Origin: Prochlorococcus sp. AG-335-A05 | GTDB lineage: Bacteria > Cyanobacteriota > Cyanobacteriia > PCC-6307 > Cyanobiaceae | Assembly (NCBI GenBank): GCA_003282425.1 | Contig: QBZF01000001.1 | Location: forward strand, 57,450 to 121,449 | Direction of reading: 5' to 3' | DNA length: 64,000 bases | Shown: positions 57,677 to 59,506 of the stretch, in pieces | Layout: each line of letters opens with the position of its first letter | Position numbering within the stretch: position 1 is the first letter of the stretch | Notes under the pieces: model-generated | What the model saw: the letters and a program-made list of their open reading frames with translations, nothing else | Database searches by the model: none | What the model was told of the DNA's origin: nothing | Position numbers and translations under genes: made by a program

Positions 57677-57725
57677 GATTTACCCCTTGTCATAAGGTAC
57701 ATGTAAGAGTTAAATTTTTATATGT

Positions 57726-57797
<72 letters not shown>

Positions 57798-57822
57798 TTT
57801 AAAAGTCAAGAAAAGTCATACT

Positions 57823-57847
57823 AAGTCACCCTTAGGTGACTTTTTTT
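57823..57847 (+). terminator. intrinsic terminator downstream of tRNA-Asn
   Basis: AAGTCACC-CTTA-GGTGACTT followed by T-run. Confidence 0.8.
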
Positions 57848-57882
57848 ATGTCTGTGAAACAGTTATGAGAGAAAAATATCTA

Positions 57883-57960
57883 GACGAACAATGACACTTT
57901 AATCTAATTGTGTTCGTCTATTATTCGTCTTTTTATTCATCTTTTGAAATCCTATTCGTC
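57883..57960. repeat. left cluster of T(A/G)TTCGTC boxes (inverted 57883-57890; direct 57911, 57922, 57953)
   Basis: GACGAACA, TGTTCGTC, TATTCGTC, TATTCGTC read directly; 57881-57890/57911-57920 form a 10-bp perfect inverted repeat. Confidence 0.75.
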
Positions 57961-57982
57961 CATTATTTTTATCACTTATAAG

Positions 57983-58083
57983 ACATAAAAAAAAGACCAC
58001 TATTTCTAGAGGTCTTTTCTAATTTTACCGAATCAAGTGTTTCCTTGTTTCCACTGTTTCAGTAAAAACTTTCCTTCACACAC
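57983..58083 (-). ncRNA. Yfr2-family-like small RNA
   Basis: Minus strand: TTTTACTGAA (58067-58058) pairs with TTCGGTAAAA (58032-58023), inner stem CAGTG/CACTTG, loop GGAAACAAGGAAACA; ends in GACC...GGTC + T8 terminator; -10 CATAAT at 58095-58090 and -35-like TTCCAC 17 nt upstream. Confidence 0.65.
57984..58018 (-). terminator. intrinsic terminator (strong on minus strand)
   Basis: AAAAGACC (57991-57998)/GGTCTTTT (58011-58018) stem followed on minus strand by T8. Confidence 0.8.
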
Positions 58084-58138
58084 ATAAACATTATGCCTTA
58101 TATTTCTTTTTCGTGGAAGGGACAAAAGGAATGTTACT

Positions 58139-58160
58139 AAACTGTCACATGTGACAGTTT
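58139..58160. promoter_or_regulatory. 22-bp perfect palindrome AAACTGTCACATGTGACAGTTT
   Basis: Directly visible; between the two candidate sRNAs. Confidence 0.5.
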
Positions 58161-58183
58161 CCTTTTTCTGGATATATGGCAAT

Positions 58184-58217
58184 AAAAAAACATCCTAATT
58201 TAAAGAAAAGGATGTTT
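58184..58217 (-). terminator. intrinsic terminator
   Basis: Minus-strand AAACATCC-TTTTCTTTAAATTA-GGATGTTT TTTT. Confidence 0.75.
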
Positions 58218-58252
58218 ACTTATCAGAAATATGTGTGTGAGGAGTTTCTGAT
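58184..58252 (-). ncRNA. candidate small RNA with Yfr1-like ACTCCTCACAC loop motif
   Basis: Minus strand ATCAGAAA-CTCCTCACACACATA-TTTCTGAT hairpin then AAACATCC...GGATGTTT terminator with T-run; -10-like TATATA just upstream. Confidence 0.5.
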
Positions 58253-58300
58253 GTATATAACCTACTGGATAAAGGGAACAAATATCTACAGTATTAATTC

Positions 58301-58519
58301 CTATTTCTTTTTCCAAAATAAGTAAAGATTTGAAAATTGGTTTTTAGTGTCCACAATTGCGGTGCTTGTTGAGATCAATTTCCATCCAGAAGCATTCCTT
58401 TTATTGATAATTGATGCAATTTCATTCTCTTGTCTTTGAGTATTTGCATTTCCTGCTGCGTAATAGATATCAAGATCATTTTTTACATTTGACATATTTA
58501 AATGTGTTGGTTTATTCAA
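58301..58519 (-). CDS. small hypothetical protein (DUF4177-like pattern)
   Basis: 72 aa; DIYYAAGNANTQRQENEIASIINKRNASGWKLISTSTAIVDTKNQFSNLYLFWKKK. Confidence 0.5.
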   Translation of the reverse strand: MNKPTHLNMSNVKNDLDIYYAAGNANTQRQENEIASIINKRNASGWKLISTSTAIVDTKNQFSNLYLFWKKK

Positions 58520-58588
58520 AGTTAATATTACTCAATCTTTCATCGATACTTGAGTGAATTCGATAAGGTTATTGGAAATAAGTATTGT

Positions 58589-58693
58589 ATGGTTTTACCT
58601 TCACCTCAAATTACAATTGGATTATTGCTTATAAGTATTGGAATAGTCGTAACTTTTGATATCAAAATTGATTTATTTAAAGGTAAAGAGTAA
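58589..58693 (+). CDS. 34-aa single-TM protein (not in supplied ORF track)
   Basis: MVLPSPQITIGLLLISIGIVVTFDIKIDLFKGKE. Confidence 0.35.
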   Translation: MVLPSPQITIGLLLISIGIVVTFDIKIDLFKGKE

Positions 58694-58710
58694 AAGATTT
58701 CTAATGCTTT

Positions 58711-58833
58711 ATGGAAAAGGAACCTAATTACGACAATGATGGATTAGATCCATCCGAAGAATATTTTAAAGGAAAAGGTAATGATGATGATACCTATTCC
58801 CCTCCAGAAGAATCAGAACCACCACACTATTGA
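58711..58833 (+). CDS. 40-aa acidic miniprotein (not in supplied ORF track)
   Basis: MEKEPNYDNDGLDPSEEYFKGKGNDDDTYSPPEESEPPHY; followed 35 bp later by a strong terminator. Confidence 0.4.
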   Translation: MEKEPNYDNDGLDPSEEYFKGKGNDDDTYSPPEESEPPHY

Positions 58834-58867
58834 GCAAAAGGAAATTTATTGACAGTCAATTTACATT

Positions 58868-58893
58868 AGAGGGTATAACTACCCTCTTTTTTT
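58868..58893 (+). terminator. intrinsic terminator
   Basis: AGAGGGTA-TAAC-TACCCTCT followed by T-run. Confidence 0.85.
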
Positions 58894-58980
58894 AATGTCC
58901 ATTAATACATTTCTTTTGCTGTTATTTGTAATTGCGAATTACATAAACTTATTTTTAAATATAAAAAATAAAAAAAATGA

Positions 58981-59008
58981 TTGGAAGGGTTTTGTTTTGG
59001 GGTATAAT
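58981..59008 (+). promoter_or_regulatory. candidate sigma70-type promoter TTGGAA-N16-TATAAT
   Basis: Upstream of ORF 59079-59396. Confidence 0.5.
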
Positions 59009-59078
59009 CAAGAATTTTCATAAAAAATAAACTATCATTTATAGAATCAATGAAAATAAAAATAATACCAAATATTTA

Positions 59079-59396
59079 ATGTTGCGACTTCTTCCACTAC
59101 CGATTTTTATTTGCATTTATCTATTCTCTTGGTGGAGATGTAAAAAAAATATTATCGCTAGTGATAAGCAACTAAAACCATGCATTGATTGGGCATATGT
59201 AAAAAATTTACCTCTCCCACCAAAACCTTCATTTATCGAGTTTTATATTGTTTATGTTTCTTCTTTTTTTAAATTTCCCTTTGGGATAATTGTTCAACAA
59301 CTACCTTTCTCAAAGAAAGTAAGATATTACGAAAGAGAAATGAAATTAATATTTGATAAATGGAATTTAGAAAAAATTAAAAAAATAAAAAACTAA
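59079..59396 (+). CDS. hypothetical protein, N-terminal TM
   Basis: 105 aa ORF with candidate promoter upstream. Confidence 0.45.
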   Translation: MLRLLPLPIFICIYLFSWWRCKKNIIASDKQLKPCIDWAYVKNLPLPPKPSFIEFYIVYVSSFFKFPFGIIVQQLPFSKKVRYYEREMKLIFDKWNLEKIKKIKN

Positions 59397-59398
59397 TT

Positions 59399-59418
59399 TA
59401 TTCGTCAAAATATTCGTC
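59399..59418. repeat. right cluster of TATTCGTC boxes (59399-59406, 59411-59418)
   Basis: Identical octamers to those at 57922 and 57953. Confidence 0.75.
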
Positions 59419-59484
59419 CATTTTCTTATTTCTTTCATATTTGTGATGACATATCGCTTCATATCAAGACATATTTTATTAAGT

Positions 59485-59506
59485 GCTCGAACGCCCGGGG
59501 AGTTTA
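59485..59506. repeat. att-like partial copy of tRNA-Asn 3' end
   Basis: GCTCGAACGCCCGGGGAGTTTA versus tRNA GTTCGAATCCCGCCCGGGGAGTTTA. Confidence 0.75.

What the first reader, a model, noticed from the sequence alone, without database searches (positions are those of the whole stretch)
57881..59418. Repeated T(A/G)TTCGTC boxes clustered just inside both ends of the tRNA-Asn islet
TATTCGTC occurs at 57922, 57953, 59399 and 59411; TGTTCGTC at 57911; inverted GACGAACA at 57883. None of the ORFs explains them. Multiple short direct/inverted repeats flanking a core att repeat look like arm-type binding sites of a tyrosine recombinase, or iteron-like sites recognised by a trans-acting protein.
Basis: partly seen in the sequence, partly recalled or inferred. 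Interest (0 to 1): 0.75.

Follow-up and report, generated by a model that had tools for sequence, protein, structure and literature searches.

The report
Integrase arm sites on tRNA-Asn mini-element
The repeated TATTCGTC boxes are very probably the docking sites ("arm sites") of an integrase at both ends of a small, integrase-less mobile element inserted in a Prochlorococcus tRNA gene, and many other elements in that tRNA gene carry such sites in the same positions but with different sequences, which suggests that each is addressed to its own helper enzyme.

Summary
Six TRTTCGTC boxes lie in 1.5 kb against 26 in the whole 858-kb assembly. Closely paired boxes occur in 18 of 266 Prochlorococcus genomes, at tRNA-Asn wherever the locus was read. 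The islet is a 1,705-bp element between two copies of the tRNA 3' end. Its boxes sit at fixed distances from these cores: left +83 (inverted), +111, +122, +134, +153; right -92, -80. Other elements in the same tRNA gene have this geometry with different box sequences (at least 12 types). In a survey, 37 of 45 distal cores carry such a pair, against 22 of 689 control windows. About 20 of 23 related tyrosine recombinases have a pair upstream of their gene, and box sequence tracks the integrase N-terminal region, not the catalytic one. These are therefore most likely arm-type sites. The TATTCGTC elements encode no integrase, so mobilisation would be in trans (inferred); no helper was found. The closest integrase-bearing relative has the same geometry with TAYTAGTCC boxes. 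The right half is 95-97% identical in DNA to that of clades with much more diverged flanks. New variant of a known kind; iterons are not supported.

The parts
57725..57798 (+). tRNA-Asn(GTT), the target gene; its 3' end holds the left core copy
   Evidence: ARAGORN, Rfam RF00005
57786..57800 (+). left core (att) copy CCGCCCGGGGAGTTT at the tRNA 3' end
   Evidence: sequence; second copy at 59491
57823..57847 (+). terminator-like hairpin AAGTCACCCTTAGGTGACTTTTTTT at the left end; conserved in the TATTCGTC family
   Evidence: sequence, left-end alignment of 17 elements
57883..57890 (-). inverted arm box TGTTCGTC, +83 from the core
57911..57918 (+). arm box TGTTCGTC, +111
57922..57929 (+). arm box TATTCGTC, +122
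57934..57941 (+). degenerate arm box TATTCATC, +134 (a perfect box in several relatives)
57953..57960 (+). arm box TATTCGTC, +153
58016..58085 (-). cargo: Cyano-1 sRNA (RF01701), just inside the left arm
   Evidence: also in elements of L039, L044, L046
58175..58252 (-). cargo: Yfr10 sRNA (RF02362)
   Evidence: also in elements of L039, L044, L046
59079..59396 (+). cargo ORF of 105 aa, no family match; carried by many TATTCGTC elements, ends 2 bp before the right boxes
59399..59406 (+). right arm box TATTCGTC, -92 from the core
59411..59418 (+). right arm box TATTCGTC, -80 from the core
59436..59478 (.). conserved spacer between right arm and core; several relatives carry the perfect palindrome ATATGTCATGACATAT here (candidate site for an accessory protein, unproven)
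   Evidence: sequences of right ends
59491..59505 (+). right core (att) copy ACGCCCGGGGAGTTT; the chromosome resumes after it (95% identical to the same-clade genome G033)

Best explanation
The islet is a non-autonomous integrative element, 1,705 bp from core to core, inserted at the 3' end of tRNA-Asn. The TATTCGTC boxes are arm-type binding sites for the N-terminal domain of a tyrosine integrase, with the tRNA-derived cores as strand-exchange sites. One inverted and four direct boxes form the left arm; a tandem pair forms the right arm. The integrase would bridge arm and core as lambda Int does and move the element in trans. Shown here: duplicated core, fixed arm geometry, the same architecture with other box sequences on integrase-bearing relatives, covariation of box and integrase N-terminus, absence of an integrase in the element, and horizontal spread of the right half. 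Inferred: protein binding, and mobilisation in trans by a helper that recognises TATTCGTC.
For: Geometry is the same in nearly every intact element examined: right pair near -92/-80, left direct boxes at about +111, +122, +134 and +154. 37 of 45 distal cores have a pair against 22/689 controls, and three more are decayed TATTCGTC pairs. The G127 integrase element has boxes at +82 (inverted), +111, +122, +134, +154, -92 and -80 with TAYTAGTCC, matching the islet, and G236 has the same box on an element without integrase. Perfect or near-perfect pairs lie upstream of about 20 of 23 related integrases, at this and at other att types. Box similarity correlates with the integrase N-terminus after controlling for the catalytic region (partial r 0.54, none of 5000 permutations reached it) and not the reverse (-0.31). 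No integrase lies in any TATTCGTC element. Right-half DNA is 95-97% identical to that of clades whose rpaB, where compared, is about 83% identical, but only 92% identical to same-clade G053. Left boxes are more conserved than the spacers between them (p = 0.007).
Against: No integrase with TATTCGTC arms was found in 266 genus genomes, in a sample of the family, in the species-genome collection or in IMG/VR, so the helper is hypothetical. No known arm-binding Pfam domain was detected in the N-termini, and no structure was predicted. No exact empty site exists in the window's own clade, although empty sites are the rule in other genomes of the genus. Some elements have lost boxes, so part of the family is decaying. 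The covariation test does not model phylogeny beyond the partial correlation.
Confidence: 0.87

Rival explanations
1. Dead remnant: the boxes were arm sites of a complete element that lost its integrase, and the islet is now immobile and decaying.
For: No integrase in any TATTCGTC element. Only one of the 18 box-bearing genomes has a relative of the integrase anywhere. Some copies have degenerate boxes, e.g. G053 and G112. Ends-only elements of 169-257 bp look like internal deletions.
Against: Boxes are more conserved than spacers; the right half is 95-97% identical between clades with much more diverged flanks; intact arms and cores occur in about ten genomes with different cargo; tandem arrays show repeated insertion.
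Confidence: 0.25
2. Sites for an element-encoded or host regulator (transcription factor or excisionase), not for the integrase itself.
For: Arm regions of integrative elements usually also hold accessory-protein sites; a palindrome is conserved between right arm and core.
Against: The two arms share one box; geometry is fixed relative to the cores while sequence differs between elements; box sequence follows the integrase N-terminus. No candidate regulator gene was seen to be shared by all elements.
Confidence: 0.07
3. Iteron-like replication or partition sites.
For: Short direct repeats with 11-12 bp spacing resemble iterons.
Against: No replication initiator in the islet; the boxes are split between the two ends at fixed distances from the att cores; elements of about 220 bp keep only the ends.
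Confidence: 0.02
4. Chance enrichment of an octamer in AT-rich intergenic DNA.
For: None found.
Against: Shuffles, the reversed control pattern and genus-wide positions all exclude it.
Confidence: 0.001

Closest known systems
Lambda-type attP/attL/attR with arm-type sites and a heterobivalent integrase (PMC4880445; arm-binding recombinase class in PMC8138268)
   Same: Core sites plus distant short repeats on both arms; N-terminal domain reads the arms, the other domains read the core; paired sites on one arm.
   Different: No integrase in the element; a near-constant arm geometry is shared by many elements with at least 12 different arm sequences at one target; host bending-protein sites not identified.
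Tycheposons of Prochlorococcus (as described second-hand in PMC10872708 and PMC11389934; the original paper was not found in the library)
   Same: Genus, tRNA target with a partial tRNA repeat at the far end, cargo; related integrase-bearing elements of 7-10 kb sit in the same tRNA gene.
   Different: This element is 1.7 kb and has no recombinase (PMC10872708 gives 4-200 kb). Whether the original paper describes arm sites or such mini-elements could not be checked.
Cis-mobilisable elements and tandem genomic islands, e.g. Dehalococcoides ssrA islands (PMC3146451)
   Same: Elements with functional-looking att sites but no integrase, in tandem behind one RNA gene.
   Different: Dehalococcoides islands use a putative serine-type integrase; arms that predict a helper specificity are not described there in the passages read.
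MITEs and integrase-less integron cassette arrays (CALIN), as summarised in PMC11389934
   Same: Non-autonomous units reduced to recognition ends plus small cargo, moved in trans.
   Different: Tyrosine integrase att sites with arms, at a tRNA target; no transposase ends and no attC sites.

Membership tests
lambda-type arm-site-bearing att sites | duplicated core at both ends of the element | tested here: met
   cores at 57786 and 59491
lambda-type arm-site-bearing att sites | one short motif repeated on both arms at fixed distances from the core | tested here: met
lambda-type arm-site-bearing att sites | an N-terminal integrase domain that determines arm recognition | tested here: inconclusive
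   covariation supports it; the PHROG_1 integrase profile covers the N-terminal region as well; no Pfam arm-binding domain hit
lambda-type arm-site-bearing att sites | integrase encoded by the element | tested here: not met
   none in the islet or in any TATTCGTC element; present in relatives with other boxes
lambda-type arm-site-bearing att sites | integrase binds the boxes and needs them for recombination | not testable with these tools
   needs a binding or recombination assay
tycheposon | integration at a tRNA gene with a partial tRNA repeat at the far end, in Prochlorococcus | tested here: met
tycheposon | encodes a tyrosine recombinase | tested here: not met
tycheposon | size 4-200 kb (PMC10872708) | tested here: not met
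   1,705 bp
non-autonomous (cis-mobilisable) integrative element | attL and attR retained, no integrase, evidence of past movement | tested here: met
non-autonomous (cis-mobilisable) integrative element | demonstrated mobilisation by a helper | not testable with these tools
   no helper found; needs experiment
iteron origin | replication initiator gene and one repeat cluster | tested here: not met
   no such gene; two clusters tied to att cores

The most novel reading that the evidence does not exclude
The tRNA-Asn locus hosts an arm-addressed cassette system: elements from about 0.2 to 10 kb share one core and one geometry, but each carries one of many arm sequences that act as addresses, so that an incoming integrase moves only the matching resident cassettes. 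Integrase N-terminal domains and arms would then diversify like interchangeable keys and locks while catalytic domain and target stay the same.
Probability: 0.45. Interest if true: 0.8.

Novelty: new variant of a known kind. Interest (0 to 1): 0.63.

Why it matters
Much of the variable gene content of Prochlorococcus sits in tRNA-linked islands whose movement is poorly understood. A simple rule, a direct-repeat pair at -92/-80 of a tRNA core copy, makes such elements findable without an integrase gene, predicts which integrase moves which cassette, and gives a natural series of arm sequences paired with integrase N-termini for working out how arm specificity evolves. TATTCGTC elements also carry known regulatory sRNAs (Yfr10, Cyano-1).

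Tried and rejected
Search for an integrase with TATTCGTC arms: none in the genus, in a 400-genome family sample, in the species-genome collection, or in IMG/VR, where 82 contigs match the bare pair pattern but none shows this core at the right distance. Relatives of the integrase profile or of the 105-aa ORF in IMG/VR: none. The ORF in phage records: none. Solved structures related to the integrase by sequence: none. Exclusive link of Yfr10 to these elements: rejected, because Yfr10 occurs in 218 of 265 genomes, mostly elsewhere. Exact empty site in the window's clade: not found; G033 has another element there. A first extraction of integrases missed seven of 16 because of a bad filter and was repeated. 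The right-end part of the conservation script failed, so box conservation was measured on the left end only.

Full report
OBSERVATION. The window holds nine TRTTCGTC against 1.3 expected, and no shuffle in 100 reaches nine. In the whole assembly (858 kb, 53 contigs, 54% complete) there are 26, six of them in this 1.5 kb; the two pairs found by the spaced pattern are both here, and the reversed control pattern gives none. A seventh, degenerate copy, TATTCATC, lies at 57934.

GENUS-WIDE. Closely spaced pairs occur in 18 of 266 Prochlorococcus genomes. A tRNA-Asn gene is found in 14 of the 17 fetched 3-kb loci from other genomes; in the other three (L003, L006, L012) the boxes lie behind further copies of the tRNA-derived core, i.e. 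in tandem arrays.

ANATOMY. The islet runs between two copies of the tRNA 3' end: CCGCCCGGGGAGTTT at 57786 and ACGCCCGGGGAGTTT at 59491. After the right copy the sequence is ordinary chromosome, 95% identical to the same-clade genome G033. Distances from the cores are: left +83 (inverted), +111, +122, +134 and +153; right -92 and -80. Relatives keep these positions to within a base or two, apart from a few with a small insertion near the left core such as L043. Between the arms lie the sRNAs Cyano-1 and Yfr10 and a 105-aa ORF without family match.

OTHER ELEMENTS IN THE SAME tRNA. Printing the core copies of other genomes showed, about 80-90 bp before nearly every distal core, a tandem direct repeat of a different sequence. 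Scanning 21 elements with their own box confirmed right boxes near -92/-80 throughout, and left boxes at about +111/+122/+134/+154 in most. Box types include TATTCGTC, TAYTAGTCC, CGTTCTGGT, ATGGTCGGG, ATGTTCGGG, ATGCAGGTG, ATGGTGGGG, GTTAGTGTA, TATGTGTGCC, TATGGGTTTT, ATGGTGGCG and TGTTCGCTA.

SURVEY. 120 regions around tRNA-Asn were fetched; 102 loci, the window included, passed the tRNA filter. Of the 93 complete ones, 62 have no second core (mostly about 340 bp from tRNA to the next gene, i.e. empty) and 31 are filled. Of 45 distal cores, 37 have a direct-repeat pair (at least 8 of 9 matches, period 10-13) in -108 to -60, against 22 of 689 control windows; three of the remaining eight are visibly decayed TATTCGTC pairs. 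An integrase of the family lies in only four of the 45 intervals, and in none of those with TATTCGTC boxes. The pair detector was written after the pattern had been seen in about a third of these loci, so the survey confirms it on an enlarged set and is not fully blind.

INTEGRASE LINK. Three elements (G127, G200, G043) carry a tyrosine recombinase of 414-439 aa near the right end, reading towards the tRNA. A profile of the three finds relatives in 25 of 265 genomes, 23 of the matches being long. Upstream of about 20 of these 23 genes there is a perfect or near-perfect tandem pair, mostly 350-500 bp from the gene start and some 70-90 bp before a core copy, also at another att type (CTCCCTCTCCG) (the G127 pair, 8 of 9). 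Integrase-bearing and integrase-less elements share boxes: TAYTAGTCC (G127 with; G236 first element without), CGTTCTGGT (G200 with; G215 without), ATGGTCGGG (G043 with; G006 first element without) and ATGGTGGGG (G182 with; G236 second element without). Among 16 integrases, box similarity follows the N-terminal region after controlling for the catalytic region (partial r 0.54; none of 5000 permutations reached it) and not the reverse (-0.31). For example, the G077 integrase is closest to G124 in the catalytic region (0.82) but slightly closer to G182 and G043 in the N-terminus, and its box is that of G043.

MECHANISM (inferred). By analogy with lambda Int, whose small N-terminal domain binds arm-type sites and whose other domains bind the core (PMC4880445), and with the class of arm-binding tyrosine recombinases (PMC8138268), the boxes are most likely arm-type sites. 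Because the TATTCGTC elements lack an integrase and 17 of the 18 box-bearing genomes have no relative of this family at all (the exception is G189; several of these genomes are incomplete), movement would need a helper, probably one that arrives from outside. The nearest candidate type is the G127 integrase: same geometry, same 12-bp spacing, box differing by one or two bases; TATTAGTC variants occur within TATTCGTC arrays.

EVIDENCE OF MOVEMENT. The right half (ORF plus arm) is 95-97% identical in DNA to that of G008, G020, G029, G058, G122 and G174, while rpaB, where it was compared (G020, G029), is 83% and the other flanks 68-79% identical. Same-clade G053 (flanks 96-98%) is only 92% identical in the right half. 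The left end, by contrast, is 92% identical to G053 and 75-80% to those others. The element is thus a mosaic with a recently acquired right half. Tandem units are seen in L006/L046. Ends-only elements of 169-257 bp, with cores and arms but no cargo, occur for several box types; the 220-bp one in G060 fits a deletion between a left box and the right pair.

LIMITS. No binding or recombination was tested. The helper for TATTCGTC is missing. The N-terminal region of the integrases has no Pfam arm-binding match, and no structure was predicted. The original tycheposon paper was not found in the library, so whether it describes these arms is unknown.

VERDICT. The more general finding is a fixed arm geometry with many interchangeable arm sequences in one tRNA target, most of it on integrase-less elements.

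Noticed in passing
58016-58085 and 58175-58252 (-): Known sRNAs Cyano-1 and Yfr10 are cargo of TATTCGTC elements here and in G012, G006 and G020 (L039, L044, L046). Yfr10 is widespread and often multicopy in the genus, mostly elsewhere.
   Followed up: partly
L237 421-655, L036 6984-7224, L057 313-552, L068 252-434, L251 531-791, L276 269-470, L286 443-713 (oriented with the tRNA on +): Ends-only elements of 169-257 bp at tRNA-Asn, with cores and arm boxes and no cargo.
   Followed up: partly
59436-59478; right ends of L004, L006, L009, L013: Palindrome ATATGTCATGACATAT conserved between right arm and core in relatives (degenerate in the window); possible excisionase or accessory-protein site.
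   Followed up: no
L032 4838-5416, L033 7009-7557 (both oriented with the tRNA on +), L034 1589-2206: Each of the three integrase-bearing tRNA-Asn elements also encodes an approximately 190-aa protein that looks like a small serine recombinase (judged by eye).
   Followed up: no
L035 678-5508, L038 907-6861, L036 1621-6492 (oriented with the tRNA on +): Large restriction-modification-like genes are cargo of integrase-less tRNA-Asn elements (judged from sequence by eye).
   Followed up: no
L062 around 340-460 (G033): The same-clade genome has a different element at this site, with a right pair ATGTGTTTT...ATGTGTTTT.
   Followed up: no
L003 537-840 (G006): Three tandem copies of an approximately 120-bp repeat inside another tRNA-Asn element.
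   Followed up: no
L125 4268-4287 (IMG/VR contig): TATTCGTCAAAATATTCGTC beside a reading frame whose reverse strand looks like an integrase C-terminus; may be coincidence, not checked.
   Followed up: no
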